The notes under the pieces were generated by a model. That model searched no databases. It saw nothing but the letters and a program-made list of their open reading frames with translations, and was not told where the DNA came from. From NCBI RefSeq assembly GCF_903970965.1, contig NZ_CAJCKW010000001.1, forward strand, positions 620,001-684,000: a stretch of 64,000 nt of DNA, written 5' to 3'. This document shows positions 46,644 through 62,675 of the stretch, piece by piece; position 1 is the first letter of the stretch; the number at the start of each line of letters is the position of its first letter. Both the position numbers and the translations under genes were made by a program. This DNA comes from Aureimonas sp. ME7. Its GTDB lineage: Bacteria; Pseudomonadota; Alphaproteobacteria; Rhizobiales; Rhizobiaceae.

Positions 46644-47549
46644 CTAACCCGAGAGCTGTGCCTCCTCGAACCAGTAGAGACGCATGGGGTTGGCGACGAG
46701 CAATCTTTCCCGCGCCTCCTCGCTCGGCGCGATCCGGGGAATCATGTCCACCAACCCACCGTCGTCGGGCATGTGCGTCGTCATGTTGGGATGCGGCCAG
46801 TCGGTGCCCCAAAGCACCCGGTCGGGGAACCGCTCCACGAGATGGCGGGCAAACGGCACGACGTCGTCGTAGGAAGGCGGTCCGCTGCGGGACAGACGCT
46901 CCGGGCAGGTGACCTTGGACCAGACGTTCGGGCGTTCCATCAGCTCGACGAAGTGGCTGAACTCGGGACCGTCGACAGGTTTCGACACGTCGGGACGACC
47001 CATGTGGTCAACCACGACCATGGTCGGCAGGCTCGTGAAGAAGTCCCAGCGCTCTTCAAGGTCGGCCGCCTCGAAGTAGACCACGACATGCCAGCCGAGC
47101 GGCGCGATGCGCTCGATGATGCGGTGGTACGTGCTGTCCGGCTTCGGATCGACGAGGCGGCGGACGAAGTTGAAGCGCACTCCGCGCACGCCCGCGGCAT
47201 CCAGCATGGCCAGGGTCTCGTCGGAGACGTCCGGGCGTACCGTGGCGACACCGCGGGCGCGTCCGCCCGAAGCCGTCAAGGCGTCGACCAATGCCCGGTT
47301 GTCGGCACCGTGACAGGTCGCCTGGACTATGACGTTGCGCGAGAAACCCAAGTGGTCACGTAGGGCGAACAGCTCCTCCTTACCCGCGTCGCAAGGTGTG
47401 TACTTCCGCTCCGGTGCATATGGGAAACGGTTGCCCGGACCGAAAACGTGACAGTGGGCATCCACCGCGCCGGGCGGCGGGACGAAGCGGGGCTTCGAGG
47501 GTGCCGGATCGTAGCTCAACCAGTTCGCGTCCATCTTGAAGTCGCTCAT
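46644..47549 (-). CDS. ligI: 2-pyrone-4,6-dicarboxylate lactonase LigI-like
   Basis: Amidohydrolase of 301 residues matching LigI, which opens 2-pyrone-4,6-dicarboxylate to 4-oxalomesaconate. Motifs are GAVDAHCHVFGPG, VVVDHMGRPDVSKP, VKVTCPERLSR-like SKVTCPERLSRSGPPSY, and WGTDWPHPNM. The upstream gene (overlap 4 bases) encodes LigJ, the hydratase for its product, which supports the assignment. It is likely part of the wider aromatic cleavage regulon in this region. Confidence 0.9.
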   Translation of the reverse strand: MSDFKMDANWLSYDPAPSKPRFVPPPGAVDAHCHVFGPGNRFPYAPERKYTPCDAGKEELFALRDHLGFSRNVIVQATCHGADNRALVDALTASGGRARGVATVRPDVSDETLAMLDAAGVRGVRFNFVRRLVDPKPDSTYHRIIERIAPLGWHVVVYFEAADLEERWDFFTSLPTMVVVDHMGRPDVSKPVDGPEFSHFVELMERPNVWSKVTCPERLSRSGPPSYDDVVPFARHLVERFPDRVLWGTDWPHPNMTTHMPDDGGLVDMIPRIAPSEEARERLLVANPMRLYWFEEAQLSG

Positions 47550-48568
47550 AGGCCCCGTGCCCTCAGTTGCGCGTCGAGTCGCGGATAGACACGTCGCGCA
47601 TTGCCCTCGAACACTCGGTGCTTGTCCTCCTCGGGGATGGGGAGGGCGTCGATGTAGCGCTTGGTGTCGTCGAAATGGTGCCCCGTCTCCGGATCGATGC
47701 CGCGCACGGCGCCGACCATCTCAGAGCCGAACAGGATGTTGCCGACGTCGATCACCTCGAACAGGAGGTCGATGCCCGGCTGGTGGTAGACGCAGGTGTC
47801 GAAGTAGACGTTGCGCATCACGTGTTCGGCGAGGGGGGGCCGCTTCAGCATGTCTGCGAGGCCCCGATAGCGTCCCCAATGGTAGGGAACCGCCCCTCCG
47901 CCATGCGGAATGACGAGGCGCAGCGTCGGGAAGTCCTTGAACAGGTCTCCTTCGATGAACTGCATGAATGCGATCGTGTCGGCTGCGAGGTAGTAGGCGC
48001 CGGTCGCGTGCATGGCCGGGTTGCACGAGCCCGAGACGTGGATCATGGCTGGCACGTCCAGCTCGACCATCTTTTCGAAGAACGGGTACCACGCCCGGTC
48101 CGTGAGCGGCGGTGCGTCGAAGCGGCCGCCGCTCGGGTCTGGGTTGAGGTTGCAGCCGACGAAGCCGAGCTCATTCACGCAGCGCTCCAACTCGTCAATG
48201 GAATGCGCGATCGACACGCCCGGAGACTGGGGAAGCTGACAGACGCCGATGAAGGTCTCGGGATAGAGGTCGACCACGCGCTTGATGAGGTCGTTGCAGC
48301 GCCGCGTCCAGGCTTGGCTCACCGCTTCGCTGCCGACGTGGGGCGCCATGGCCGAGGCTCGTGGCGAGAAGATCGTCATGTCGGCGCCACGCTCGCGCAG
48401 GAGCCGAAGCTGGTTGGTCTCGATCGAATCGCGGATTTCGTCGTCCGAGATCTCCGGATAGTCCGGATCGACATCTCCGGCCGCCCTGAAGGCCGCCTCC
48501 TGTCGGTTGCGCCATTCGGTGTGTGACGCCGGAGCGGTCGTGTAGTGGCCGTGGCAATCGATGATCAT
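47546..48568 (-). CDS. ligJ: 4-oxalomesaconate hydratase LigJ-like (amidohydrolase fold)
   Basis: Amidohydrolase-family protein of 340 residues matching LigJ, which hydrates 4-oxalomesaconate to 4-carboxy-4-hydroxy-2-oxoadipate. It starts MIIDCHGHYTTAP with metal ligands. Further motifs are NPDPSGGRFDAPPLTDRAW, MIHVSGSCNPAMHATGAYY, RLVIPHGGGAVPYHWGRYRG and LFGSEMVGAVRGIDP. The ATG at 48568 is fixed by homology. It overlaps ligI by 4 bases and lies 146 bases downstream of a LysR gene in the same direction. Confidence 0.9.
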   Translation of the reverse strand: MIIDCHGHYTTAPASHTEWRNRQEAAFRAAGDVDPDYPEISDDEIRDSIETNQLRLLRERGADMTIFSPRASAMAPHVGSEAVSQAWTRRCNDLIKRVVDLYPETFIGVCQLPQSPGVSIAHSIDELERCVNELGFVGCNLNPDPSGGRFDAPPLTDRAWYPFFEKMVELDVPAMIHVSGSCNPAMHATGAYYLAADTIAFMQFIEGDLFKDFPTLRLVIPHGGGAVPYHWGRYRGLADMLKRPPLAEHVMRNVYFDTCVYHQPGIDLLFEVIDVGNILFGSEMVGAVRGIDPETGHHFDDTKRYIDALPIPEEDKHRVFEGNARRVYPRLDAQLRARGL

Positions 48569-48714
48569 GGAAGTTCGTCCTGCGGCTGCGGGGCGGTCCG
48601 AACGTGACGGGCAGCTCCTCCGGCGAAGACCGCGGGCTAGCGTCCGTTTCGTCCACCTGCCTCTTGTAAGGTTACCCTCACGTTCCGCGAGCATCGAAAG
48701 CGGTTGCCCGCCAT

Positions 48715-49926
48715 TCAAATTCCGGATGTGTCGGGCTGCGCGGCCGCCGTGAGCGCGTCGATCAGGGCGCTCTGGATCGCGGTCGGGCGCCAGTCCGCGC
48801 GGAGCGCGATCCCGATCCGGCGCCGCGAGCCAGGAACTGGGCCGGCGACGGCGGCGAGGAGCCCAGCATCCCGCTCGACCCGGAACTGGTCGGAGGAGAG
48901 AAGGGCGAGCCATTCTCCCCGAAGCATCAGCCCGCGGGCCGTGAGCACGGAGCCGCATTCGATGCGTCGTGCCGGACGCCGCGCCGCGAACATCGTTTCC
49001 CAGACCGCGCGCATCGGCGCGCCGGACGCTCCGACGATCCAAGGGAAGGACGCGAGTGCCTCGAGGGTCGGCACTTCGTCGCCTGCGAGCGGGTGATCGG
49101 CACGGCCGACCACGAAGAGGTCGTCGTCCAGGAGCGGGCGCTGCACGACGTCTGAGCTCGGTGCCGGATCGCGGAGCGCGCCGACCAGGATGTCGATCTC
49201 GCCGCCGCGCAACGCCATCAGCAGTTCGGTGTAGGAACCCTCGACGATCGTCACCTCAGCCTGTTCGTAAGCTGACATGAGGAGCGCCAGGGCTTCCGGC
49301 AGGAGCCGCGCCCGGGGAAGGGGAAGCGTACCTACAACGACGCGCCCGGTTCCCGCCCGAACCAGTGCGGCCAGTTCGTCGAGCCCCGCCTGCAGCTCGG
49401 CGACCATCAGGCGGATCGAGCGGACGAAGCGAACGGCGGCAGCGGTCGCCCGGACGGTGCGTCCTACCCGCACGAGAAGGTTCTGCCCCAGGATCAGCTC
49501 CAGCTCCTTGACGGCCCGGTGCACGGATGGCTGGGCCAGCCGCAATTCGCGCGCGGCCATGACGTAACTGCCGGAGCGCTCGACGCTCGACAGCGCCCGT
49601 AATTGCCCCATCGTCACGCGCCGCTCGATGTATGCGATCTGCGGAAGCCTTGCCGCCCGTCGGATCCGGCGCCCGCCTGCCACAAGGTGGTCGAGCGCCC
49701 GCGCCGCGCGAGCGATGAAGGTCGCTCCGGCGGGGGTCGGCACGGTTCCGCCGGGAAGACGGTCGAACAGACGCTGGTCTAGGAGGATCTCCAGCTTAGT
49801 GAGTGCCTGGGTGAGCGCGGGTTGGGAAAGGTTCACCGCGCCCGACGCCGCGCTTACGCTGCCCTCCCGCGCTACCGCGAGCACGGCGTCGATATGGCGA
49901 AGATTGAGGTCGAAGGGCCCGAGCAT
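48715..49926 (-). CDS. LysR-family regulator with duplicated N-terminal HTH
   Basis: Regulator of 403 residues, about 100 longer than ordinary LysR proteins because there are two HTH domains. The first is about residues 8-66 (HIDAVLAVAREGSVSAASGA, SQPALTQALTKLEILLDQRL); the second is about 105-165 (LRALSSVERSGSYVMAAREL, AQPSVHRAVKELELILGQNL). An ordinary effector domain follows. The regulator at 56224 has the same architecture. It lies in front of ligJ/ligI in one direction, and the conserved ATAGC-N5-CTTATGG site is just upstream of its start. Confidence 0.93.
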   Translation of the reverse strand: MLGPFDLNLRHIDAVLAVAREGSVSAASGAVNLSQPALTQALTKLEILLDQRLFDRLPGGTVPTPAGATFIARAARALDHLVAGGRRIRRAARLPQIAYIERRVTMGQLRALSSVERSGSYVMAARELRLAQPSVHRAVKELELILGQNLLVRVGRTVRATAAAVRFVRSIRLMVAELQAGLDELAALVRAGTGRVVVGTLPLPRARLLPEALALLMSAYEQAEVTIVEGSYTELLMALRGGEIDILVGALRDPAPSSDVVQRPLLDDDLFVVGRADHPLAGDEVPTLEALASFPWIVGASGAPMRAVWETMFAARRPARRIECGSVLTARGLMLRGEWLALLSSDQFRVERDAGLLAAVAGPVPGSRRRIGIALRADWRPTAIQSALIDALTAAAQPDTSGI

Positions 49927-49935
49927 GATCCATCT

Positions 49936-49952
49936 ATAGCGAAGGCTTATGG
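49936..49952. promoter_or_regulatory. Shared operator motif ATAGC-N5-CTTATGG, site 1
   Basis: TATAGCGAAGGCTTATGG lies ten bases upstream of the LysR start and in the divergent region before the TctC-type gene at 50133. The same ATAGC-N5-CTTAT core occurs at 58402 and 61144. The motif contains the LysR T-N11-A pattern and is roughly palindromic. Confidence 0.65.
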
Positions 49953-50132
49953 CACGCACGCTCTTTCGTCTGGTGCATTCGAGTTGGCTGGGGCACCTCT
50001 GGGCGAAAGGATCCCGCGCCGTTCCGAAACGGATGGGACGCACGCTTCCCCGGCAGGGAGAACTCGGCTGCGCCCGGAAACTTGCCGGGTGCCGCGCTGG
50101 GCGGAGATCCGACGGTTCAGGGAGGCAAGGCT

Positions 50133-51140
50133 ATGTGCAAGATCTTCGGGATGACCCGGCGTGGGATGATTCGGCTGATGGGCGGAGCGGCGCTCGGCGC
50201 TCTCGCCCCGCTGCTTCAACCGGATGCCGCGATTGCGCAGGACGCCTATCCCAATGCGCCGGTAACGATCGTGCTGCCCTTCGGGCCGGGCGGCATCGCG
50301 GACATTACCGCGCGCATCGTCGCCGAGGGGCTGACCCGCAAGCTCGGCCAGCAGTTCTTGGTCCAGAACCAGCCCGGCGCCGGTGGCTCCACCGCGGCGC
50401 GCATCGTCCTGTCGGCGCCTGCCGACGGCTACACGCTGGCCTTCTTCACGAACGGCACCTCCATCTCGGTTCCGCTTTTCGCGCAACTGCCCTTCGACCC
50501 GGTCCAGGAGTTCGTCCCCGTCTCAAGTCTCGCCTACTTCGACTTCGTCTTCGCGACCCGGAAGGGCGGTCTCTACGACTCCATGGAAGCGTTGCTGGCA
50601 GCCTCACGTGCGGAACCGGGCGTCCTGAACGTCGGCACGGTGAACGTCGGCTCCAGCCAGAACCTCGCGGCCGAGCTGTTCCGCACGACGTCGGGCATCG
50701 AGTTCACCGTGGTGCCCTACCGCGCGACGCCGGATCTCCTGGTCGGCCTCCTGGGGGAGGAGGTGGATCTCATCATCGACAGCGAGGCGGCCCTGAAGTC
50801 GGCGCTCGACGACGGACAGGCGCTGGCGGTGGCCTCATCGGGCCCCAAGCGCTCGACCGTCTTGCCAGACGTTCCTACTGCCGCCGAAGCCGGGGTCGCC
50901 GGCTTCGACGTCACTTCATGGAACGCCATCTTCGCGCCGGCCGGAACGCCGGAACCCGTGGTCACCCAGCTCAACACCGCCGTGAACGAGATCCTGGCGG
51001 ATCCGGCGACCATCCAGCGCTTCCGTGAACTGGGCGTCGAGGCGCGAGGATCCACGCCGCAGGCCATTGGAGAGCGGATGCAGGCGGACATCGTCAAATG
51101 GGGGGCGGTGATCGAGAAGGCCGGGATCCCCAAGATGTAG
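50133..51140 (+). CDS. TctC/Bug-family periplasmic substrate-binding protein
   Basis: Binding protein of 335 residues. A signal sequence of twin-arginine-like character (MTRRGMIRLMGGAALGALA) ends near residue 35 (AAIAQ). Motifs are APVTIVLPFGPGGIADITAR, NQPGAGGSTA, ADGYTLAFF and VLPDVPTAAEAGV. The ATG at 50133 has GGGAGG upstream. It is divergent from the tandem-HTH LysR and shares the motif at 49936. It is followed 63 bases later by the ModA-like gene. The ligand is probably an aromatic or ring-cleavage acid, by context. Confidence 0.93.
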   Translation: MCKIFGMTRRGMIRLMGGAALGALAPLLQPDAAIAQDAYPNAPVTIVLPFGPGGIADITARIVAEGLTRKLGQQFLVQNQPGAGGSTAARIVLSAPADGYTLAFFTNGTSISVPLFAQLPFDPVQEFVPVSSLAYFDFVFATRKGGLYDSMEALLAASRAEPGVLNVGTVNVGSSQNLAAELFRTTSGIEFTVVPYRATPDLLVGLLGEEVDLIIDSEAALKSALDDGQALAVASSGPKRSTVLPDVPTAAEAGVAGFDVTSWNAIFAPAGTPEPVVTQLNTAVNEILADPATIQRFRELGVEARGSTPQAIGERMQADIVKWGAVIEKAGIPKM

Positions 51141-51203
51141 GACGACAACGGGCGGCATGTCCGCCGTCGTCGCAACCCCGGAAACGACCGGAAGGAAGAC
51201 GCC

Positions 51204-51893
51204 ATGAAAACGAAGATCGTTCTGGTGTCGTCCATGGCGATGCGGCAGATCCTCGGTGAACTTGCGGAGCGCTACGAGGCGGAAACGGGCTGCCTCGTCG
51301 ATCTCAGGCCCATGGGGGGCGTGGACGCCGCGAACCGCGTTCGGGAAGGCGATGCGGCCGACGCGGTCGTGCTCGCCCGCGATGCCATGGCCGACCTGGA
51401 ACGGGCCGGTCACGTCCGCGCCGGAAGCACGGTGAGCCTCGCGCGCTCCGGCATGGCCGTGGCGGTGCCCACCGGCGCCCCGCATCCTGACCTTTCCGAC
51501 GAGGCGGGATTTCGGACGAGCGTCTTCGGCACCAGCCGCATCGCCTATTCGACGGGGCCGAGCGGCAACCACTTCCTCCGTCTGTGCGAGCGTTGGGGTC
51601 TGCTGCCGGACGGGGCCGAACGCCTCGTGAAGGCGCCACCCGGCGTACCCGTCGGGGATCTCCTCGCAAGGGGCGAGGCCGCGCTCGGCGTCCAGCAACT
51701 CAGCGAACTGCTCAATGTGCCCGGTATCGAGATCGTCGGCCCTCTGCCGCCCGAGATCCAGTCGATCACGGTTTTCTCGGCAGGCGTCGCCGCCAGCTCG
51801 CGGAGACCGGAGGAGGCGGGCCGTCTGATCGCCTTCTTGGCAGACGGAGAAGCCGCGCAGGTCAAGCGCCGGCATGGCATGGAGGCGGCTTGA
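51204..51893 (+). CDS. ModA-like substrate-binding-fold protein without signal peptide
   Basis: Protein of 229 residues with the type II periplasmic binding fold of the molybdate-binding (ModA) family: KIVLVSSMAMRQILGELAERY, DAVVLARDAMADLERAG, RIAYSTGPSGNHFLRLCERW and ITVFSAGVAASSRRPEEAG. It has no signal peptide, so it should stay in the cytoplasm, and no ModB/ModC is near. The GGAAGGA-type ribosome site and short gap suggest co-transcription with the TctC gene. It may be a cytoplasmic enzyme, perhaps an isomerase, or a sensor in the aromatic pathway rather than a transporter part. Confidence 0.82.
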   Translation: MKTKIVLVSSMAMRQILGELAERYEAETGCLVDLRPMGGVDAANRVREGDAADAVVLARDAMADLERAGHVRAGSTVSLARSGMAVAVPTGAPHPDLSDEAGFRTSVFGTSRIAYSTGPSGNHFLRLCERWGLLPDGAERLVKAPPGVPVGDLLARGEAALGVQQLSELLNVPGIEIVGPLPPEIQSITVFSAGVAASSRRPEEAGRLIAFLADGEAAQVKRRHGMEAA

Positions 51894-51958
51894 GCTGATC
51901 GCTCGTCCAACCGTGGACGCATAGCCTAAGGTGCCGGCGGCAACTCCGCTTCGCGAGC

Positions 51959-52852
51959 CTAGCCGGCAGCGAAGTGGCCGACCACGAAGCGACGCAGTTG
52001 CACGGCCGCAGGCGAGAGGGGCTTGCCACGTCGGGATACGATGCTGATCTGGCGGCGGACCTCCGGCTCGGCCAGCCGGATCAGCCGCAGGTCGTCGCCG
52101 ACCTTAGACGGGAACGACATCTGCGGGATGACCGCCGCCGCAAGCCCCTCGCGCGCCAACGCGATCGCGGTTTGCAGGTGCTGGACCTCGAACTGCCATT
52201 CGAGACCCTCCACCTTACCGTCAAGGGCGTCGTCGATGATGGCCCTGTTCCCGGTCCGGCGGCTGACCCGGATCAGGGGAAGCTTCGAGAGCTCGCTCCA
52301 GCGCACCTCGTCGCGGTTCGCCAGCGGGTGCGACGGTCCGCAAACGAGGACGAACGGATCGTCCAGCAGAACCTCCGTGTCGAAGTCCCAGCGGTCCGTG
52401 AAGGTCATCGTCAGCCCGAACTCGATGACGCCCTGCTGGAGCAGTTCGACGATCTCGGATGCCGAGAGATCGAAGATCTGCACGTGGACACGGGGTTGCT
52501 GGCGGTTGAACGCGCGCAGGATCGACGGCAGCCGACCGCTGGCGATCGTGGGCAGGCAGCCGATGGAAAGGGTCTGCCGGCGCTCGTCGCCCTCCTTCTT
52601 CAACTCCTCAAGCGACGACGACAGCCCTTCGACGGCAGCCTGGACCTTTGGGAGGAGCGTCAGCCCGGCCTCCGTGAGCGAGACGCGCCGTGTCGTTCGC
52701 GACAGCAGTTTCACGCCCAGGTCGTCCTCGACCTTGCGAACGCGATGGCTGAGCGCCGTCTGGGACAGGTTGAGGTGGAGCGCGGCGGCGCGGAAGCTGC
52801 CGTGTTCCGCGATGGCAAGGAACGCCCTCAAGCCCTGAAAGTCGATGTTCAC
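51959..52852 (-). CDS. LysR-family transcriptional regulator
   Basis: LysR regulator of 297 residues with a single N-terminal HTH (GLRAFLAIAEHGSFRAAALH, SQTALSHRVRKVEDDLGVKL) and an effector domain (FVLVCGPSHPLANRDEV). It is divergent from the tctB gene with 119 bases between starts, and is the likely regulator of the tctBAC transporter. It is of normal length, unlike the two tandem-HTH regulators around it. Confidence 0.93.
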   Translation of the reverse strand: MNIDFQGLRAFLAIAEHGSFRAAALHLNLSQTALSHRVRKVEDDLGVKLLSRTTRRVSLTEAGLTLLPKVQAAVEGLSSSLEELKKEGDERRQTLSIGCLPTIASGRLPSILRAFNRQQPRVHVQIFDLSASEIVELLQQGVIEFGLTMTFTDRWDFDTEVLLDDPFVLVCGPSHPLANRDEVRWSELSKLPLIRVSRRTGNRAIIDDALDGKVEGLEWQFEVQHLQTAIALAREGLAAAVIPQMSFPSKVGDDLRLIRLAEPEVRRQISIVSRRGKPLSPAAVQLRRFVVGHFAAG

Positions 52853-52971
52853 AGGAAGTCCGCCCTTTGGATTGATGCACCGAATCGCTCAATCCGCCGA
52901 AGGAAATCATTTGTTACAGCAGTTGTCGACTTCCATAGTCCCTGCGTCATCAACGGAGGGGAGGCTTCGTC

Positions 52972-53607
52972 TTGGCGTTTCCAGCACATGCTCTCGTACG
53001 CAAGCCACGCAACCTCGTCGGAGGCCTGCTGCTGGTCGGCCTCGCCGCGGGCGCGCTACGCCTGTCCGCCCAACTCGACCAAGGAACGCTGGGGGCGATC
53101 GGACCGGGAATGTTTCCCCGGTGGCTCGCGTTCTGCCTCGGCCTATGCGGCCTTGCGGTCGCCGCCTCGGCGCTGAAGGAGGGCGACCCGTCCGGGGCCG
53201 ACGGGCTGGAGGCGATAGGCGTGCGGGGCCCGGCATTGGTGCTGCTGGCGATCGCCTCGTTCGCCCTCACGCTGCGTCCCTTCGAACTCGGGCCGTTCTC
53301 GACCCCGGGCGGCGGCCTGCTCGTCGCGGGCCCCCTGACCGTCTTCCTCGGTGGCCTTGCGACGCCGGAGGCCCGTCCGCGTGAGTTGCTCGCGATCGGA
53401 GCGGGCCTGACGGCGTTCTCCATCGTGCTTTTCGCCGACCTCCTGAACCTCCCCATCCCGGTCTACCCGCAAGCACTGGCCGACGCCCTCTTCGCAGGCT
53501 GGTCGCACAAGACGGTCCTACGCGTCCTGGCGGCGCTGCTCGCCCTTATCGCCGCGGTGCTGGTCGTCCTCGGCGAGCGGGCGCCGACGGAGGCCGACCG
53601 TGGTTGA
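52972..53607 (+). CDS. tctB: Tripartite tricarboxylate transporter small subunit TctB-like
   Basis: Small membrane subunit of 211 residues with about four or five membrane segments (NLVGGLLLVGLAAGALRL, FPRWLAFCLGLCGLAVAASA, ALVLLAIASFALTL, VLAALLALIAAVLVVLG). The motif QGTLGAIGPGMFPRW is typical of TctB. The start is TTG at 52972 with GGGGAGG seven bases upstream. It overlaps tctA by 8 bases. With TctA and the TctC at 55189 it makes a full secondary carboxylate importer. Confidence 0.88.
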   Translation: MAFPAHALVRKPRNLVGGLLLVGLAAGALRLSAQLDQGTLGAIGPGMFPRWLAFCLGLCGLAVAASALKEGDPSGADGLEAIGVRGPALVLLAIASFALTLRPFELGPFSTPGGGLLVAGPLTVFLGGLATPEARPRELLAIGAGLTAFSIVLFADLLNLPIPVYPQALADALFAGWSHKTVLRVLAALLALIAAVLVVLGERAPTEADRG

Positions 53608-55105: not shown

Positions 55106-55188
55106 ACGCGAGCGTGCCAGCCAGCACGGGACGCCGCAGGCTGCCCGGAAGCGACACCACAAGACATCACCGACAGGGAGGAAACGAC

Positions 55189-56202
55189 ATGGTCCATGAA
55201 GCGAGAAGGGCGGGCGTCGAAGTAAGCCGCCGCACGGTACTGGGCGGGGCGGCCGCAATTGCCGCCGGCTTCTTCGCCAAGCCGTTCGCGGCGCTCGCGC
55301 AGGAGTATCCCACGCGCAACGTCACCCTCATCGTGCCGTTCACGCCCGGCGGCTCGACGGACATCCTGGCCCGCCTCCTCGGCCAGGAGCTGGAGAAGAC
55401 GCTCGGACAGCCGATCGTCGTGGAGTCCCGTCCGGGCGGTGGCGGCTCCGTCGGCGTCGGTTTCGTCGCCCGCGCCAACCCGGACGGCTACACGCTCGTC
55501 ATGGGGCACATCGGCTCGCTGGCCGTCGCCCCGAGCCTCTACCCGAAGCTGCCCTACGACCCGGTCAAGAGCCTCTCGCCCATCAGCGGGATCGCGAAGG
55601 TCCACAACATGCTGGTCGTCAACCCGTCCGTCCCGGCGCAGAACCTTTCCGAACTCGTAGCCTACGCCAAGGCCAATCCCGGCAAGCTGAACTACGCCTC
55701 TGGCGGCAAGGGCAGCGCCGCCCACATCGCCATGGTCGCGCTCTGCGACGCGGCGGGCATCCAGATGACCCACGTCCCCTACAAGGGCACGGCCCCCGCC
55801 GTGACGGACCTTCTGGGTGGACGGGTGCAACTGACCTTCACGGGCGCGCCGAACCTCATCCAGCACGTCAAGGCAGGCACGCTCCGCCCCATCGCGGTCT
55901 CGGGCGCCACGCGCCTGGCGGCCGCGCCCGACGTCCCGACCGTGGCCGAGGCCGGCTACCCCGGGTTCGAGGCCTCCCAGTGGTACGGCATCCTAGCCCC
56001 CGCCGAGACGCCCGCGCCGATCGTCGAGCGCCTCAACACCGAAATCGTCAAGGTCATGGCGTCGCCCGCGATCGCCGAACGGCTCGCGGCGGAGGGGGCA
56101 GACGTCTGGACGGACACGCCCGACGACTTCCGTGGCTTCATCGGTCAGGAGATCGTCCGCTGGGGCGACCTGATCAAGAAGGCCAGGATCCAGCCCGAGT
56201 AG
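55189..56202 (+). CDS. tctC: Tripartite tricarboxylate transporter binding protein TctC-like
   Basis: Periplasmic binding protein of 337 residues, the partner of TctB/TctA upstream. The signal region has a twin-arginine motif (VSRRTVLGGAAAIAAGFFA) and ends near AALAQ. Bug motifs are NVTLIVPFTPGGSTDILAR, SRPGGGGSVGVG, PDGYTLVMG, THVPYKGTAPAVTDLLGG and AAPDVPTVAEAGYPGFE. The ATG at 55189 has GGGAGGAAACGAC before it. The ligand is unknown; genes on both sides suggest an aromatic acid or its ring-cleavage product. Confidence 0.95.
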   Translation: MVHEARRAGVEVSRRTVLGGAAAIAAGFFAKPFAALAQEYPTRNVTLIVPFTPGGSTDILARLLGQELEKTLGQPIVVESRPGGGGSVGVGFVARANPDGYTLVMGHIGSLAVAPSLYPKLPYDPVKSLSPISGIAKVHNMLVVNPSVPAQNLSELVAYAKANPGKLNYASGGKGSAAHIAMVALCDAAGIQMTHVPYKGTAPAVTDLLGGRVQLTFTGAPNLIQHVKAGTLRPIAVSGATRLAAAPDVPTVAEAGYPGFEASQWYGILAPAETPAPIVERLNTEIVKVMASPAIAERLAAEGADVWTDTPDDFRGFIGQEIVRWGDLIKKARIQPE

Positions 56203-56223
56203 CGCGATCTCGGCCGGGACACT

Positions 56224-57426
56224 TCAACGGTTCCCGGCCGCACTCTCCAACAGGCCGACGAACTCCCGCTGGGCGTTCGTCGGCATCCAGCTCGCGCGCA
56301 GCGTCAGTCCGATGCGGCGAGAGGTGTGGGAGAGATCGACCGCCAGCGGCGTCAGGAGCCCGCGGCTGATCTCGGCCTCCACCTGGAGCCTGGAAATGCA
56401 CCCGACATGGTCGCTGATCTCCAGAAGCTCGCGCATGAGGATCATGGAGCCGGATTCGACGATGCTGGCGGGTGGGGCAATGCCCCGGAACAGGGCGTCG
56501 AAGTGGGCCCGGATCGGTGTGCCGGGCTGCGCCACCACGCAAGGGTATGCGGCCACGTCGGCCACCTCGACCCTGTTCCGGTCGGCAAGCGGATGGTGGC
56601 GTCGCGTCACCAGCGCGAGCGTGTCGGAGAACAGGTGGCGCTGCTCGACGTCGGCGATCGGGAGGGGGTCGCGCAGCGCGCCGACGAGGAAATCGATCTC
56701 GCCCCGGCGCAGACCCGCCAGGAGATCGTCGTACGGTCCCTCGACGACGTGGACGGGCAGGTTGGGCCGCATCTCCCGAAAGCGGGCAATGGCCTTCGGC
56801 AGGAGGTAGGAGCGGGAAAGCGGCATGCCCCCGATCACGATCCGTCCGGCCTCGCCGGACTGCGCGTCGGCAAGATCCGCCTCGGCCTGGTCGAGCTCGA
56901 CGAAGGCGAGGCGGGCGGCCTGCGCAAGGGCCTGTGCCGTCCGTGTCGCGACCATGCCGTAGGAGGTCCGCTCCAGGAGTGGCCGGGCCGCCTCGTGCTC
57001 GAGCTGGGAGACGGCTCGATGGACCGTCGGCTGGGCGAGGCCGAGACGCCGCGCGGCGAGGGTGAAGTTCTCCGCTTCTCGCACCGCGATCAGTGCCTGG
57101 AGCTGCGCGGTCGTCGCCGTGATCAGGAGCCTCGGCGACAACGCGGACAGGACCGGGTCGAGATGCTCGAAGGCACGCCTCACCCGAAGGGCGAGGATGT
57201 CGCCGAGCGGCGTCGCGAACAGGCCTTGCGGCGTGCGCCCGAAGAGAGGGGCGCCAGCGGTCCGTTCGAGTTTGGCGATCGCCTGCGTGACGGCAGGCTG
57301 CGTGACATGGCAGCTCTCGGCTGCCCGGGTGACCGAGTGGGTGTCGACGACCGCCAGGAAGACGCGCAGGTGACGAAGGCTGTGCCCCGCTATCAGGGTC
57401 GGCTCCCCCGCCTCTCCGCCGGTCAC
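56224..57426 (-). CDS. LysR-family regulator with duplicated N-terminal HTH
   Basis: Regulator of about 400 residues with two HTH domains: about 15-72 (HLRVFLAVVDTHSVTRAAES, TQPAVTQAIAKLERTAGAPL) and about 105-160 (QLQALIAVREAENFTLAARR, AQPTVHRAVSQLEHEAARPL). The effector domain follows. No ATG is near; the best start is GTG at 57426, overlapping the stop of the DUF1932 dehydrogenase gene as GTGA, so the two are translationally coupled. It is a paralogue of the regulator at 48715 and probably binds the shared ATAGC-N5-CTTAT motif. Confidence 0.92.
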   Translation of the reverse strand: MTGGEAGEPTLIAGHSLRHLRVFLAVVDTHSVTRAAESCHVTQPAVTQAIAKLERTAGAPLFGRTPQGLFATPLGDILALRVRRAFEHLDPVLSALSPRLLITATTAQLQALIAVREAENFTLAARRLGLAQPTVHRAVSQLEHEAARPLLERTSYGMVATRTAQALAQAARLAFVELDQAEADLADAQSGEAGRIVIGGMPLSRSYLLPKAIARFREMRPNLPVHVVEGPYDDLLAGLRRGEIDFLVGALRDPLPIADVEQRHLFSDTLALVTRRHHPLADRNRVEVADVAAYPCVVAQPGTPIRAHFDALFRGIAPPASIVESGSMILMRELLEISDHVGCISRLQVEAEISRGLLTPLAVDLSHTSRRIGLTLRASWMPTNAQREFVGLLESAAGNR

Positions 57427-58325
57427 CGGACCAAGCGCTCGATCACGCGGTCGGCCCGTTCGGCAAGCTCGTCGGAGCCCGGGGCCACCTTCAGCGTCGC
57501 CACCTCGTCCTGCCACTCGGCCGCCGCTTTCGTCATCCGGTCGGGTAGCCCGAGGTCGCGCAGCGTGGCGGCGACCTCCCGCATCTCCGCGGCACGGCGG
57601 GTCCCGTGGACCATCATGCGCTCGAAATTGTAGGCGGAGCGCGCCCGCCAGTCGAAACCGGGGTCGGAGGCCTGGAGCGAGGCAAGGACGGCGTCCTCCA
57701 CGCCCGCTCGCCGGGCCGCAAGAACGCATTCGGCGGTAAGGGCCTCGAAGCCCTTGATCATCACGGAGCGAAGCATCTTCGTCGCCGAGGCCGCGCCGAC
57801 CTCCGTTCCCGCCACATTGCCCTTCATGCCGAGACCCGAGAGGGCGCGAGCCGCCGCCTCGGCCCCCGCGCCCGACAGGAGGAGCGGCACCTTGTGGCGG
57901 GCCGGATGCACCGGGGACATCACCGCAACGTCGACGTAGGTTCCGCCCGCCCGCTCGATCAGCGCGGCGTTGCCCTGCTTTGTGGAGGGCGCGCATGAGT
58001 TGCAGTCGAGGAAGAGCGTGCCCGGCTCGATGTGGCGGGCAGCCTCCTCGGCGGCGTCCCGGGCGCGGTCGGCGGTCACAAGGCTGAACACGACGGACCG
58101 CCCGCGGGTCGCGGCGTCGGGGGCTGCCGCGCATTCTACGGCCAGGTCCTCGCAAGGACCTGTGATGCTGCTCCGCAGGGCGGGATCGAGCACCTTCTCG
58201 TCGAAGGCGGCGACCGAGATGCCGGCGGGCACGTCCGCCGCCGAGCGCCAGCCCGAGACGAAGGCGCGTGCCGCCTCGCCGAAGCCAATGAAGCCGATGT
58301 CAGGCACGTTCGTGATCGTGTCCAT
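57423..58325 (-). CDS. DUF1932/6-phosphogluconate dehydrogenase-like NAD(P) oxidoreductase
   Basis: Beta-hydroxyacid dehydrogenase-type protein of 300 residues. The N-terminal Rossmann motif is IGFIGFGEAARAFVSGW; the central region has DCNSCAPSTKQGNAALIE and YVDVAVMSPVHPARHKVPLL; a catalytic-Lys-like region is GAASATKMLRSVMIKGFEAL; the C-terminal helical domain matches DUF1932. The ATG at 58325 with a perfect GGAGGAACGC upstream was chosen over an earlier Met. It is divergent from galB. It may supply the dehydrogenase step that LigC performs in the protocatechuate 4,5-pathway, but this is inference from position. Confidence 0.88.
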   Translation of the reverse strand: MDTITNVPDIGFIGFGEAARAFVSGWRSAADVPAGISVAAFDEKVLDPALRSSITGPCEDLAVECAAAPDAATRGRSVVFSLVTADRARDAAEEAARHIEPGTLFLDCNSCAPSTKQGNAALIERAGGTYVDVAVMSPVHPARHKVPLLLSGAGAEAAARALSGLGMKGNVAGTEVGAASATKMLRSVMIKGFEALTAECVLAARRAGVEDAVLASLQASDPGFDWRARSAYNFERMMVHGTRRAAEMREVAATLRDLGLPDRMTKAAAEWQDEVATLKVAPGSDELAERADRVIERLVR

Positions 58326-58401
58326 GCGTTCCTCCGTCGGGCTGTCGCGCCGTTCCATGACGGCAAAAACTGGCAGAGGTCGATTGGCCTGAACAGGCGT
58401 T

Positions 58402-58418
58402 ATAGCTTTAACTTATGG
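58402..58418. promoter_or_regulatory. Shared operator motif ATAGC-N5-CTTATGG, site 2
   Basis: TATAGCTTTAACTTATGG lies between the divergent DUF1932/LysR and galB operons. It matches site 1 at all positions outside the five-base spacer. An overlapping inverted repeat, ATGGG-TGG-CCCAT, spans 58415-58427. Confidence 0.65.
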
Positions 58419-58492
58419 GTGGCCCATCAATCCCAATTAGCGTTGCGGCGCGATCGGCGCGACACCTCCCGGCAACGCAGGAGGAGGGATTC

Positions 58493-59227
58493 ATGACCGA
58501 TCGGAAAACGGCGCTCGTCGTCAGCGCCCACGCGGCGGACTTCGTGTGGCGATGCGGCGGGGCCATCGCGCTCCATGCCGACAAGGGTTACGAGGTCACC
58601 GTCGTCTGCCTGTCCTTCGGTGAGCGGGGCGAGTCCGCCAAGCTCTGGAAGCAGCCGGACATGACGCTCGACCGCGTCAAGGCGGCGCGCCGGGCGGAAT
58701 CGGAGAAGGCCGCGAAGGCGCTGGGCGTCCACGACCTCGTCTGCTTCGACCTCGGCGACTACCCGCTCCGCCTCAATGACGGGGACAAGGATCGCTTGGT
58801 CGACGTGATCCGCGACGTGCAGCCGTCCTTCATGCTGTGCCACTCCCAGTACGACCCCTACAACACCGACCACAGTTATGCGACGCAGGTCGCCCTCGAG
58901 TGCCGGATGATCGCGCAGGCCTGGGGCCACAAGCCCGGACAGAAGGTGCTCGGCGCCCCGCAGCTCTATCTCTTCGAGCCGCACCAGACCGAGCAGATGG
59001 GCTGGAAGCCGGACACGTTCCTCGACATCACCCCCGTCTGGGACAAGAAGCGGGCCGCCATCGAGTGCATGGAGGGGCAGGAGCACCTCTGGGAGTTCTA
59101 CACCCGTGTCGCCCAGAACCGGGCCAACCACTTCCAGCGCAACTCCGGCGGCCAGTCCGGCGGGCGGGCGTCGAAGTACGCGGAAGGCTTCCAGTCGGTC
59201 TTCCCGCGCACCGTCGACGAGCTCTGA
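58493..59227 (+). CDS. galB: 4-oxalomesaconate hydratase GalB-like (PIG-L family)
   Basis: PIG-L/LmbE-fold protein of 244 residues, similar in pattern to GalB, the gallate-pathway 4-oxalomesaconate hydratase. The zinc-site motif is SAHAADFVWRCGG (His13, Asp16); the second site is HSQYDPYNTDHSYAT, with LGAPQLYLFEPHQTEQMGW further on. The ATG at 58493 follows GGAGGAGGG. The dioxygenase and LigK genes follow in the same operon. A second, unrelated hydratase for the same reaction (LigJ) is encoded at 47546. Confidence 0.88.
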   Translation: MTDRKTALVVSAHAADFVWRCGGAIALHADKGYEVTVVCLSFGERGESAKLWKQPDMTLDRVKAARRAESEKAAKALGVHDLVCFDLGDYPLRLNDGDKDRLVDVIRDVQPSFMLCHSQYDPYNTDHSYATQVALECRMIAQAWGHKPGQKVLGAPQLYLFEPHQTEQMGWKPDTFLDITPVWDKKRAAIECMEGQEHLWEFYTRVAQNRANHFQRNSGGQSGGRASKYAEGFQSVFPRTVDEL

Positions 59228-59270
59228 GGGCCAGGGCCGCGGGAGGCGGCCGCAAGGGAGGAACGACAGC

Positions 59271-60233
59271 ATGGACGAGCAAAGCTTCGACATCGCGCAC
59301 CTCGCGCACGTGGAACTCTACACGGACCGCTTCGAGGAGAGCCTCGACTTCTTCGTCAACGTCTACGGGCTGACGCTGTCGGGGCAGGACGGGGAGTCGG
59401 CATACCTTCGAGCCTGGGACGACTACGAGTTCCACTCGCTGAAGCTCACCCGGCACCACACGACGGGCATCGGGCACATCGCCTACCGCGCGTCGTCACA
59501 GGCTGCGCTCGAGCGCCGTGTGGCGGCGATCGAGGCCAGCGGCTTCGACGTGATCGGATGGGTCGACGGCGATCCCGGGCACGGCCGCGCCTTCCGCTTC
59601 AAGGACCCGTTCGACCACGTGTTCGAGATCTACTGGGACACGGTTCGCTACGCGGCTCCCGATCACGAGCGTCCGAAGCTGAAGAACGTCGCGCAGCGCT
59701 ACCACGCGCGCGGCGCCCATCCCCGGCGGATCGACCATCTCAACCTCCTCGCCGAGGACGTGACGGAGTTCCGCCGCTTCATGGAAACGTGCCTCGGCTC
59801 GCGCGTCACCGAGATGATCCGGCTCGACAACGGGCGGCTCGGCGGCGCCTGGTTCACGATCAACAACAAGACCTACGACCTTGCCTGCACCGAGGAGCGG
59901 GGCGGCGGCCACGGGCGGCTTCACCACGTCACCTACGCCACCGACACACGCGAGGACATCCTCCGGGCGGCCGACATCTTCCTCGAGAACGGCATCCACA
60001 TCGAGACCGGGCCGCACAAGCACGCGATCCAGGGGACCTTCTTCCTCTACGTCTGGGAGCCTGCGGGAAACCGCGTCGAGCTCGCCAACTCCGGTGCCCG
60101 GCTGATCCTCGCCCCCGACTGGGAGCCTGTCGTCTGGACCGAGACGGAACGGAAGAAGGGGCAGGCCTGGGGCCTCAAGACCATCGAGACCTTCCACACC
60201 CACGGCACCCCGCCGACCAAGAAAGGACACTGA
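59271..60233 (+). CDS. Type I extradiol ring-cleavage dioxygenase (VOC, XylE-like)
   Basis: Two-domain vicinal-oxygen-chelate dioxygenase of 320 residues. The likely Fe(II) ligands His156 ([13 protein letters not shown]), His219 ([20 protein letters not shown]) and Glu270 ([14 protein letters not shown]) are in the right places, and His251 in GPHKHAIQG matches the active-site His of catechol 2,3-dioxygenase. It should cleave a catechol-type ring next to a hydroxyl. Its operon partners are GalB and LigK, which normally follow the unrelated LigB-type dioxygenases. The ATG has GGGAGGAACGACAGC upstream. The aromatic substrate is not known. Confidence 0.9.
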
Positions 60234-60234
60234 G

Positions 60235-60906
60235 ATGGGCATCGTCGTCCAGAACGTCATCCGCGCCGAGCAGGCCGTGATCGACGGCCTCGCGAAGGCG
60301 GGCGTCGCCACCGTGCACGAGGCGCAGGGGCGTCGCGGCATGCTGGCGAGCCACATGCGGCCGATCTACACCGGCGCGCAGGTCGCGGGGTCGGCCGTCA
60401 CCATCTCTGCCCCTCCGGGCGACAACTGGATGCTGCATGTCGCGATCGAGCAGGTGAAGCCGGGCGACATCCTCGTGCTCGCCCCGACGAGCCCTTGCGA
60501 CAACGGCTACTTCGGCGACCTCCTCGCCACGTCCGCCGTGGCGCGCGGTTGCCGCGGCCTCGTCATCGACGCCGGGGTCCGCGACGTGCGCGACCTGACC
60601 GCCATGGGCTTCCCCGTCTGGTCGAAGGCGGTGTCGGCGCAGGGGACGGTGAAGGCGACGGTCGGCTCGGTGAACGTGCCGGTCGTCTGCGCGGGCGCGG
60701 CGATCGAGGCGGGGGACGTCATCGTCGCGGACGACGACGGCGTCTGCGTCGTCAAGCGCGCCGAGGCATCCGAGGTGCTCGCGGCCGCCGAGAAGCGGCT
60801 CGCCGCCGAGAAGGCCAAGCGCACCCGGCTCGCCGCCGGCGAACTCGGTCTCGACATCTACGGCATGCGGCCGGAACTGGAGGCCAAGGGCCTGCGCTAC
60901 GTCTGA
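60235..60906 (+). CDS. ligK: 4-carboxy-4-hydroxy-2-oxoadipate aldolase LigK-like (RraA fold)
   Basis: RraA-fold class II pyruvate aldolase of 223 residues, the usual length for LigK/ProA/GalC, which cleaves 4-carboxy-4-hydroxy-2-oxoadipate to pyruvate and oxaloacetate. Motifs are [40 protein letters not shown], and the RD metal/substrate site [19 protein letters not shown]. It starts one base after the dioxygenase stop and is the last gene of that operon. It is longer than the RraA-like protein at 25118 and clearly a separate paralogue. Confidence 0.9.
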
Positions 60907-61143
60907 CGCGGACGGGGTGGAACACGCCTTTCCCGATACGGCTCGGCAGTCCAATTCTGGACTGGCGTCCAGATCATGTGGCGCCACGCGCGGAGCTACC
61001 GGACAGCAGCGATCGAAGCTGCTTTCGACGTGGCCGGCGAGCTCGACATCCGAGGTGTCGCGGTCGCCGGATCCGCTTCGAGCACCGCTGTGGCACGCGT
61101 CTGGACCTGTCGGCGGCCAGTCGATGTCGCGCCCGGCGCTTCC

Positions 61144-61158
61144 ATAGCAAGAACTTAT
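61144..61158. promoter_or_regulatory. Shared operator motif ATAGC-N5-CTTAT, site 3
   Basis: ATAGCAAGAACTTAT lies 168 bases upstream of the MFS start. The fixed ten bases of the motif are identical to sites 1 and 2; the two following Gs are not conserved. It links the transporter to the tandem-HTH LysR regulon. Confidence 0.6.
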
Positions 61159-61172
61159 CACGCGCACGTGAT
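61157..61172. promoter_or_regulatory. Perfect inverted repeat ATCACG-N4-CGTGAT
   Basis: A 6-base perfect inverted repeat around CGCA directly overlaps the right edge of the third shared operator. It could be a second binding site or part of an extended operator upstream of the transporter gene. Confidence 0.45.
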
Positions 61173-61325
61173 TTTGGAATGGGATGACGCGCTGAGCCGC
61201 CTAGGGTGCCACCCGGGACCAGGGAGGAAAAACGCCCGGGGAGGGTGGTCTCCCAAGGCGGCGGACGACGGAGAACTCTTCCGATGTCCGCCCGGACGCA
61301 ACCATGGCTCCCGGGAGGAAACGAC

Positions 61326-62675
61326 ATGCAGGCCACCGACGCGATCGAGATCCGGTCGTTCATCGACGAACGCAAGATGTCCCGCCAGCAGTGGTTGCTG
61401 GCCATCCTCTGCTTCGCGATCGTTCTCTGCGACGGCATGGACGTCGCGGTGATGGGCTTCCTCGCCCCCGCGATCATCGAGGGCTGGGGGATCTCGCGGC
61501 CCGAATTCGGCTTCGTCATGGGTGCGGCGCCGATCGGCCTCGCGGTCGGCGCAATCGTGGCGGGCTCCTCGTCCGACTGGTTCGGGCGCCGCAAGGTTCT
61601 TCTCGCCTCGGTCCTTGCCTTCGGCGTCCTGACTTTCCTGACCTCCTACGCCCAGACCACGACCCAGATGGCGCTCCTACGCTTCCTGACGGGGCTCGGC
61701 CTCGGCGCCGCGATGCCGAACACGACGACGCTCCTGTCGGAATACGTGCCGCAGCGCTCGCGCTCGTTCCTGCTCGCCACGATGTTCACGGGCTTCAACT
61801 TCGGCTCGGCCATCATCGGCTTCGTCGCCGCCTACATGCTCCCGCGCTACGGCTGGCAATCGGTGCTCCACTTCGGCGCCGTCATCCCGCTCGCGCTCTG
61901 CGCCGTCCTGTTCTTCCTCCTGCCGGAATCGGCGCGCTTCATGGTTGTGCGCGGCCACTCCGTCGACCGCATACGCAGGGTCCTGTCCCGCGTCAGCGGC
62001 GCCGACCTTTCGGGCGTGCGCGCCTTCACCCTCCACGAGGAGCCGGTTGCGGCCAAGCAGCCCGTAGCCGTCCTGTTCTCGCCCGCCTTCCGGGTCCGCA
62101 CGTTCTCGCTCTGGGTCTGCTACTTCATGGGACTCCTGGTCATCTACCTGTCTACGAGCTGGCTTCCGACCATGATGAAGGACGCCAACATGTCGATCGA
62201 CAGGGCGGCCAACGTCACTGCGATGTTCCAGCTCGGCGGCACTGTCGGCGCCATCGTGGTGGGCTTGGCCATGGACCGCTTCGGCGCTGCCCGCTCCATC
62301 GCCACCGCCTACCTCCTGGGTGGGATCTCCCTCATCCTGCTTGGCGTCGGCGGCATCGAGTCCCTCTGGCTTGCGGCGGTCGTCGCGGTCGTCGGCTTCT
62401 GCATGAGCGGCGGACAGACGGGCCTCAACGCCTTCGCGCCTGGCTGCTACCCGACCTTCGCCCGCGCGACCGGCGTGAGCTGGATGCTCGGCGTCGGCCG
62501 CCTCGGCAGCATCCTCGGATCCTCGATCGGCGGCGTGCTCCTCAGCTTCGGCTGGGACTTCCGGACGATCTTCTGCGTGCTCGCCGTCCCCGCCGTGATC
62601 AGCGCGGTCGCCATCTTGGTCGGCAACATGCAGCGCGCGAGAGACGGATCGGTGACGGAACTACATCGCGTCTAG
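61326..62675 (+). CDS. MFS transporter, aromatic acid:H+ symporter (AAHS) type
   Basis: Major facilitator with 12 predicted membrane segments and 449 residues. The N-terminal half has ILCFAIVLCDGMDVAVMGFL (the acidic DGMD in segment 1 is typical of AAHS permeases such as PcaK and GalT), DWFGRRKVLLASVLAFG and LTGLGLGAAMPNTTTLLSEY. The ATG at 61326 has GGGAGGAAACGAC upstream. It follows the galB/dioxygenase/ligK operon and carries the shared operator, so it likely imports the aromatic acid they degrade. Confidence 0.92.
   Translation: MQATDAIEIRSFIDERKMSRQQWLLAILCFAIVLCDGMDVAVMGFLAPAIIEGWGISRPEFGFVMGAAPIGLAVGAIVAGSSSDWFGRRKVLLASVLAFGVLTFLTSYAQTTTQMALLRFLTGLGLGAAMPNTTTLLSEYVPQRSRSFLLATMFTGFNFGSAIIGFVAAYMLPRYGWQSVLHFGAVIPLALCAVLFFLLPESARFMVVRGHSVDRIRRVLSRVSGADLSGVRAFTLHEEPVAAKQPVAVLFSPAFRVRTFSLWVCYFMGLLVIYLSTSWLPTMMKDANMSIDRAANVTAMFQLGGTVGAIVVGLAMDRFGAARSIATAYLLGGISLILLGVGGIESLWLAAVVAVVGFCMSGGQTGLNAFAPGCYPTFARATGVSWMLGVGRLGSILGSSIGGVLLSFGWDFRTIFCVLAVPAVISAVAILVGNMQRARDGSVTELHRV

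What the first reader, a model, noticed from the sequence alone, without database searches (positions are those of the whole stretch)
46644..62675. Possible alternative protocatechuate/gallate-like meta-cleavage pathway with replaced first enzymes
LigI, LigJ/GalB and LigK are the established lower steps from pyrone dicarboxylate to pyruvate and oxaloacetate. The usual LigAB (LigB-fold) dioxygenase and LigC dehydrogenase are not seen. In their place are an XylE-like type I VOC dioxygenase in an operon with GalB and LigK, and a divergent DUF1932 dehydrogenase. This would be non-orthologous replacement of the ring-cleavage and oxidation steps, or a route for a different aromatic acid ending in the same intermediates.
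Basis: partly seen in the sequence, partly recalled or inferred. Interest (0 to 1): 0.8.

Follow-up and report, generated by a model that had tools for sequence, protein, structure and literature searches.

The report
Likely VOC-type gallate ring-cleavage enzyme
A bacterial gene cluster that probably breaks down gallate, a plant tannin building block, seems to use a ring-opening enzyme from a different protein family than the one known for this step, which would mean that nature invented this reaction twice.

Summary
The genes are as described; LigI, LigJ, LigK and GalB match their PDB namesakes. The reading changes. (1) The VOC dioxygenase is best explained as a gallate dioxygenase replacing LigB-fold GalA/DesB. 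Of its 80 best related loci (of 566), 65 hold GalB, 68 LigK and 67 the tautomerase GalD, but 7 LigI and 1 LigJ. In 6 of 80 it lies behind an MFS transporter, where Rouxiella has GalA; 16 of 80 have LigM; one Agrobacterium plasmid lineage adds a tannase. The own genome has PcaH and no LigB domain. (2) DUF1932 is not a LigC substitute: five clusters have it beside LigA, LigB and LigC-type genes. Its role is unknown. (3) LigI-LigJ is a separable, transporter-linked module, perhaps for 2-pyrone-4,6-dicarboxylate. The clade has Tyr where relatives have the catalytic His. Against: no assay; the own genome lacks GalD; four relatives have both VOC and a GalA/LigB-type gene; 11 of 80 loci lack gal partners. 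LigC was searched in the window only.

The parts
59271..60233 (+). VOC (type I extradiol) dioxygenase, 320 aa; proposed gallate dioxygenase
   Evidence: TIGR03211 303.5 bits; 9wgj 365 bits, 3lm4 221, HPCD 114; metal ligands H/H/E kept, catalytic His replaced by Tyr; neighbourhood
58493..59227 (+). GalB, PIG-L-type 4-oxalomesaconate hydratase, 244 aa
   Evidence: 5cgz 318 bits; PF02585; start
60235..60906 (+). [quoted passage not shown]
   Evidence: TIGR02798 377.5 bits over cut-off 304.5; 3noj 309 bits
57423..58325 (-). DUF1932 beta-hydroxyacid-dehydrogenase-like protein, 300 aa; conserved beside OMA genes, reaction unknown
   Evidence: PF09130 + PF03446; model pLDDT 93, closest folds 4ezb and 3qsg; context
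56224..57426 (-). LysR regulator beside DUF1932 (start uncertain), candidate GalR analogue
   Evidence: PF00126 + PF03466; next to DUF1932/GalB in relatives
61326..62675 (+). MFS aromatic acid/H+ symporter (PcaK/GalT-like)
   Evidence: PF07690; NF053517 472 bits, under cut-off 770; TIGR00895 383 bits, under cut-off 418.55
46644..47549 (-). LigI, 2-pyrone-4,6-dicarboxylate hydrolase, 301 aa
   Evidence: 4d8l 364 bits
47546..48568 (-). LigJ, amidohydrolase-type 4-oxalomesaconate hydratase, 340 aa
   Evidence: 6dwv/6dxq 568 bits; PF04909
48715..49971 (-). LysR regulator of the LigI-LigJ module (start uncertain)
   Evidence: PF00126 + PF03466; same order LigI-LigJ-LysR in L028, L127, L128, L129
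50082..51140 (+). TctC-type periplasmic carboxylate-binding protein
   Evidence: PF03401; near LigI in L127, L128 and in L001, L006, L023, L036
51959..52852 (-). LysR regulator beside the Tct transporter genes
   Evidence: PF00126 + PF03466; same place in L129
52972..56202 (+). TctB-TctA-TctC tripartite carboxylate transporter, probably part of the LigI-LigJ module
   Evidence: PF07331, PF01970, PF03401; TctC-TctA-TctB beside LigI-LigJ in L129

Best explanation
The 56.2-62.7 kb part is a gallate catabolic cluster in which ring cleavage is done by a type I (VOC) dioxygenase instead of LigB-fold GalA/DesB. Proposed route: the MFS transporter takes up gallate; the VOC enzyme cleaves gallate C4-C5 to 4-oxalomesaconate (OMA); GalB (or LigJ) hydrates it to CHA; LigK splits CHA to pyruvate and oxaloacetate. 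Because gallate cleavage already gives an acid, no LigC-type oxidation is needed. The LigI-LigJ-TctABC part (46.6-56.2 kb) is a second module that feeds 2-pyrone-4,6-dicarboxylate, taken up or formed as a by-product, into the same intermediates. Shown: gene identities, linkage, absence of LigB-fold enzymes from the own genome, the Tyr signature. Inferred: the substrate, the cleavage position, the transporters' cargo. Unknown: the DUF1932 reaction, and how OMA tautomerises in this genome.
For: In the 80 best VOC loci (of 566; 79-88% identity) GalB is in 65, LigK in 68, GalD in 67, LigI in 7, LigJ in 1 (identity floors 45, 50, 40, 44, 44%); 44 of 80 have GalB-VOC-LigK with gaps under 400 nt. Neighbour families F4/F6 are OMA tautomerase over the NCBIfam cut-off (two members tested). 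1 of 80 loci also holds a LigB-type gene (L022; L080 has a weak 31% hit) and none a LigC-type gene (one 28% hit in L039). Of 40 VOC genomes, 6 have PF02900 hits over 200 bits: 3 HpaD, 2 LigB class, 1 GalA. VOC lies 143-199 nt behind a PcaK-like transporter in 6 of 80 loci, where Rouxiella has GalA (547 bits over cut-off 412), as in P. putida galTAPR (PMC9942251, passages). A tannase follows GalD on a walnut Agrobacterium plasmid. LigM (one copy scored: 637 bits over 580) is in 16 of 80 loci, in 3 of them without GalB, LigK or GalD. PcaH is in 30 of 41 VOC genomes incl. the own. A VOC-LigK fusion protein is listed (P0082).
Against: No activity data. The own genome has no GalD, although a passage of PMC9942251 says GalB uses the enol and not the keto form of OMA when GalD is left out. 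11 of 80 loci have none of GalB/LigK/GalD (some are cut contigs), e.g. Rouxiella L030, whose genome also has GalA; Pantoea At-9b and Chimaeribacter plasmid stretches likewise. Four relatives have VOC and a GalA/LigB-type gene: Rouxiella G026; G021 (L022/L117), where VOC is divergent from an operon with the LigB-type gene; G035; and G157, on different contigs. The tannase link is one plasmid lineage, absent from all 80 loci. PF02900 hits of 125 bits or less in 22 of 40 genomes were not typed. The closest PDB chain, 9wgj, is named catechol 1,2-dioxygenase; its organism and assay were not found. Pyrogallol and 3-O-methylgallate are not excluded.
Confidence: 0.72

Rival explanations
1. One reading: VOC is a protocatechuate 4,5-dioxygenase, DUF1932 oxidises CHMS to PDC in place of LigC, then LigI, LigJ/GalB and LigK.
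For: All five steps are close together in the window and in Agrobacterium L028, where LigJ-LigI-DUF1932 form one run and LigK, GalD and VOC lie opposite. No LigC-type gene is in the window. The 11 Enterobacterales among 41 VOC genomes lack PcaH.
Against: DUF1932 relatives sit in clusters with LigA, LigB and LigC-type genes (L135-L139). 30 of 41 VOC genomes, including those 11 Enterobacterales, lack a LigI match of 250 bits or more, yet 39 of 41 have PF09130. PcaH is present in the own genome. The LigI-LigJ module lies apart from VOC in G024, G029 and G034 (L127-L129).
Confidence: 0.1
2. VOC cleaves 3-O-methylgallate (or both methylgallate and gallate), giving PDC that LigI opens, as LigM-type O-demethylation runs in parallel.
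For: LigM in 16 of 80 loci; LigI in the window and in 7 of 80 loci.
Against: A LigI match of 250 bits or more is missing from 30 of 41 VOC genomes, so PDC would be a dead end in them.
Confidence: 0.08
3. VOC is a catechol-, pyrogallol- or homoprotocatechuate-type enzyme unrelated to OMA that happens to sit in the operon.
For: Sequence family is catechol 2,3-dioxygenase/HpaD-like; the nearest PDB chain is named catechol 1,2-dioxygenase. I did not search the loci for catechol meta-pathway genes.
Against: The GalB-VOC-LigK order with gaps under 400 nt in 44 of 80 loci and linkage to gal genes in both Alpha- and Gammaproteobacteria would be hard to explain.
Confidence: 0.1

Closest known systems
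Pseudomonas putida KT2440 gal pathway (galA-galB-galC-galD, galT, galP, galR)
   Same: GalB, GalC/LigK, LysR regulator and MFS transporter; in relatives also GalD, and in some the transporter-dioxygenase order.
   Different: Dioxygenase is VOC instead of LigB-fold GalA; a DUF1932 protein is added; the own genome lacks GalD.
Sphingobium SYK-6 protocatechuate 4,5-cleavage pathway (LigABC, LigI, LigU, LigJ, LigK) and DesB
   Same: LigI, LigJ and LigK counterparts in the window.
   Different: No LigB-fold enzyme in the genome; no LigC-type gene in the window; PCA probably goes through PcaHG.
Type I extradiol dioxygenases: catechol 2,3-dioxygenase (XylE) and homoprotocatechuate 2,3-dioxygenase (HPCD)
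   Same: Whole-length similarity, H/H/E metal ligands and second-sphere Trp, His and Tyr columns.
   Different: Tyr at the catalytic His200 column (HPCD numbering) and Thr at the HPCD Arg243 column (numbers and roles recalled; alignment).
Paenibacillus PraA, protocatechuate 2,3-dioxygenase
   Same: An extradiol enzyme on a benzoate-type diol outside LigAB (passages of PMC13254512).
   Different: Other cleavage position and product; its fold family was not checked here.

Membership tests
Type I (VOC) extradiol dioxygenase | Similarity over the whole length to type I enzymes | tested here: met
   TIGR03211 positions 1-303 of 303; PF00903; HPCD and C23O aligned nearly end to end
Type I (VOC) extradiol dioxygenase | Two His and one Glu iron ligands | tested here: met
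   H157, H220, E271 (numbered from 59268; minus 1 in the protein) kept in 94 of 94 hits at 60% or more, repeats included; that these columns are the ligands is recalled
Type I (VOC) extradiol dioxygenase | Catalytic second-sphere His (HPCD His200; role recalled) | tested here: not met
   Tyr in 94 of 94 hits at 60% or more; His in 7 of 7 hits under 60% and in the C23O and HPCD chains shown
Catechol 2,3-dioxygenase equivalog TIGR03211 | Score over the curated cut-off of 320.2 | tested here: not met
   303.5 bits
GalA/DesB/LigAB (LigB-fold, PF02900) | LigB domain in the dioxygenase or elsewhere in the genome | tested here: not met
   VOC protein has no PF02900; none in the genome
Gallate (gal) pathway | OMA hydratase GalB | tested here: met
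   5cgz 318 bits
Gallate (gal) pathway | CHA aldolase GalC/LigK | tested here: met
   TIGR02798 over cut-off
Gallate (gal) pathway | OMA tautomerase GalD | tested here: not met
   None in the own genome; present in 67 of 80 related loci
Gallate (gal) pathway | Dioxygenase turns gallate into OMA | not testable with these tools
   Needs an enzyme assay
Protocatechuate 4,5-cleavage pathway | LigAB dioxygenase | tested here: not met
   No PF02900 in the genome
Protocatechuate 4,5-cleavage pathway | LigC CHMS dehydrogenase | tested here: inconclusive
   No hit in the window with three LigC-type queries; no genome-wide search was left
Protocatechuate 4,5-cleavage pathway | LigI, LigJ, LigK | tested here: met
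LigC family (GFO/IDH/MocA with PF19858) | PF01408 and PF19858 domains in the DUF1932 protein | tested here: not met
   It has PF03446 and PF09130; LigC-type proteins of L136, L138, L139, L148 have PF01408 and PF19858

The most novel reading that the evidence does not exclude
Gallate ring cleavage has arisen at least twice: besides LigB-fold GalA/DesB, a clade of VOC dioxygenases with Tyr in place of the catalytic His does the job in many Rhizobiales, Rhodobacterales and Erwiniaceae, sometimes on plasmids; and the OMA node shared by gallate and protocatechuate routes has an unrecognised extra redox partner (DUF1932).
Probability: 0.6. Interest if true: 0.65.

Novelty: new variant of a known kind. 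Interest (0 to 1): 0.56.

Why it matters
Gallate comes from tannins and from syringyl units of lignin. In the AromaDeg passages I saw, gallate dioxygenases are placed in the LigB superfamily (PMC4250580), so genomes with the VOC type would probably be scored as lacking a gallate route; records call the gene catechol 2,3-dioxygenase or VOC family protein. If true, it corrects annotation in many genomes (80 loci examined out of 566 stretches with some relative), gives a natural variant of a much-studied catalytic residue, and offers a new enzyme for OMA or PDC production.

Tried and rejected
DUF1932 as LigC substitute: rejected because five clusters (L135-L139) hold DUF1932 beside LigA, LigB-type and LigC-type genes. 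Pfam domains were shown for LigC of L136, L138, L139 and LigA of L136; the others are by BLAST to those. Two other LigB/LigC-type clusters, L147 and L148, have no DUF1932 within the fetched stretch, so it is not universal.

A single linear pathway through LigI was rejected because LigI is at 7 of 80 loci and, at 250 bits or more, in 11 of 41 genomes.

Strict exclusion of VOC and GalA/LigB types was expected and not found: Rouxiella G026, G021 (L022/L117), G035 and G157 have both.

Tannase linkage was sought in the 80 loci: 0 of 80. In plasmids it is one near-identical Agrobacterium lineage, 19 records at 99% or more, of which I viewed one; three Thioclava strains carry a tannase on another plasmid than VOC.

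The AlphaFold model of the VOC protein was poor (pLDDT 49.8) and was not used. The DUF1932 model is good (93.0) but its nearest folds, 4ezb and 3qsg, carry no named function, so it gave no substrate. No promoter- or terminator-like site was found at 58250-58600. PDB entry 9wgj is named in no held paper.

Counts to read with care: the 80 loci are the best of 566; the 40 genomes (41 with the own) are half of those loci, picked by me; the 94 residue hits repeat some genes. PF02900 hits of 125 bits or less in 22 of the 40 genomes, and second hits in the others, were not typed.

Full report
OBSERVATION. The window lies in a 4.38 Mb genome, 99.9% complete, at C1:620001-684000. The claimed genes are there. 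By comparison with PDB chains they are LigI (4d8l, 364 bits), LigJ (6dwv/6dxq, 568 bits), GalB (5cgz, 318 bits) and LigK (3noj, 309 bits). The fifth is a type I extradiol dioxygenase (9wgj 365 bits, 3lm4 221 bits, HPCD 114 bits), and the sixth a DUF1932 protein. GalB, VOC and LigK run in one direction with gaps of 43 and 1 nt. No PF02900 (LigB) protein exists in the genome. LigC-type queries find nothing in the window; the rest of the genome was not searched for LigC.

WHAT TRAVELS WITH THE VOC GENE. A scan of genome contigs gave 566 stretches encoding relatives; the best 80 were kept (79-88% identity). Among these 80 loci, GalB is found in 65, LigK in 68, GalD in 67, DUF1932 in 41, LigM in 16, LigI in 7 and LigJ in 1, with identity floors of 45, 50, 40, 38, 45, 44 and 44%. 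In 44 of 80 GalB lies within 400 nt upstream and LigK within 400 nt downstream. 11 of 80 have none of GalB, LigK or GalD. One member each of neighbour families F4 and F6 was scored: both are 4-oxalomesaconate tautomerase over the NCBIfam cut-off (499 and 545 bits, cut-off 440). So the conserved partners are the three enzymes that, in Pseudomonas putida, follow GalA in gallate breakdown (PMC9942251 and PMC10512348, passages). No oxidation step is part of that route.

WHICH DIOXYGENASE ELSE. In one of the 80 loci (L022) a LigB-type gene occurs nearby; L080 has a weak 31% hit. No LigC-type gene occurs in the 80 loci beyond a 28% hit in L039. Of 40 VOC genomes examined (half of the 80 loci, my choice), 28 have a PF02900 hit. 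Six exceed 200 bits: 3 HpaD, 2 LigB class and 1 GalA; the best hits of the other 22 are 125 bits or less and were not typed. In six Pantoea, Erwinia and Enterobacter loci the VOC gene lies 143-199 nt behind a PcaK-like transporter. In Rouxiella the gene behind that transporter is GalA (547 bits, cut-off 412). That looks like replacement in the same slot. Against a clean swap, Rouxiella also has a VOC copy elsewhere without gal genes nearby (L030).

GALLATE RATHER THAN PROTOCATECHUATE. PcaH is in the own genome (C6:240808) and in 30 of 41 VOC genomes; the 11 without it are all Enterobacterales. A LigI match of 250 bits or more is in 11 of 41, so a PDC route cannot be general. Upstream genes point to gallate: LigM (vanillate/3-O-methylgallate O-demethylase; the L050 copy scores 637 bits, cut-off 580) in 16 of 80 loci, and a tannase directly after GalD on a predicted conjugative plasmid of walnut Agrobacterium (PF07519). 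The tannase case is one plasmid lineage (19 near-identical records) and none of the 80 loci has it.

CLASS SAMPLE. In 289 genomes of the class (same handles in each of the four searches), the VOC clade (over 500 bits) is in 5, GalD over cut-off in 29, GalA over cut-off in 2, a GalA/LigB-type hit at 1e-60 in 14, and DUF1932 at 1e-30 in 25. Four of the five VOC genomes have GalD, three of them within about 2.1 kb of VOC; the exception is the window's genome. Two of the five (G229, G157) also have a LigB-type hit. All five have DUF1932. Four further VOC-like hits at 44-46% identity lie in genomes without a GalD match at 1e-80.

SIGNATURE RESIDUE. The iron ligands and the Trp, His and Tyr of the second sphere are kept (assignments recalled, alignment). 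The His that acts as acid-base catalyst in HPCD (His200; number and role recalled) is a Tyr. It is Tyr in 94 of 94 hits at 60% identity or more (repeats included) and His in 7 of 7 hits below 60%, and His in the C23O and HPCD chains but Tyr in 9wgj. The meaning is open. A protein fused from VOC and LigK (P0082, 544 aa) is one of 120 listed relatives; it comes from a 2.3 kb contig and could be an error of sequencing.

THE LIGI-LIGJ MODULE. In G024, G029 and G034 LigI-LigJ-LysR sits apart from VOC (another contig, or some 70 kb away in G024), near TctC (L127, L128) or TctABC (L129), and in L127 and L129 near DctA-type symporters; L129 has its own LigK and GalD. An Agrobacterium plasmid has two amidohydrolases in the LigI-LigJ arrangement, DctA, LigK, GalD, a TctC-type protein and VOC in one stretch without an annotated GalB. 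In the window the module borders the gallate cluster. I propose that it serves PDC taken up from outside or formed from ring-opened gallate. That LigAB-type cleavage of gallate gives some PDC is recalled.

NOVELTY. The passages of AromaDeg that I saw place gallate dioxygenases in the LigB superfamily. Searches of the open library (listings seen, passages of some) showed no VOC-type gallate dioxygenase; subscription papers are mostly not held, and a paper on gallate in Rhodococcus opacus, cited in PMC9942251, is not held. I rate this a new variant of a known kind, confidence 0.72 for the gallate reading, pending an assay.

Noticed in passing
whole genome G000: No 4-oxalomesaconate tautomerase (GalD/LigU) was found although both OMA hydratases, LigJ and GalB, are present; another isomerase or spontaneous tautomerisation would be needed.
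   Followed up: partly
L135-L139: DUF1932 recurs in alphaproteobacterial clusters with LigA, LigB, LigC-type, LigI, LigK and GalD genes; I know of no role given to it there.
   Followed up: partly
L127-L129: LigI-LigJ-LysR modules with DctA or Tct transporters, and without VOC or LigB-type hits in the fetched stretch, suggest uptake and use of 2-pyrone-4,6-dicarboxylate.
   Followed up: partly
51204-51893: A ModA-like solute-binding protein (PF13531) lies alone between the TctC gene and a LysR gene.
   Followed up: no
window 17392-18228 (G000:C1:637392-638228), - strand: A second, distant LigI-like amidohydrolase (37% identity; one search reports one TGA inside the matched stretch).
   Followed up: no
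PDB 9wgj: Closest solved relative of the VOC enzyme is named catechol 1,2-dioxygenase though it is VOC-type and also has Tyr at the catalytic His column.
   Followed up: partly
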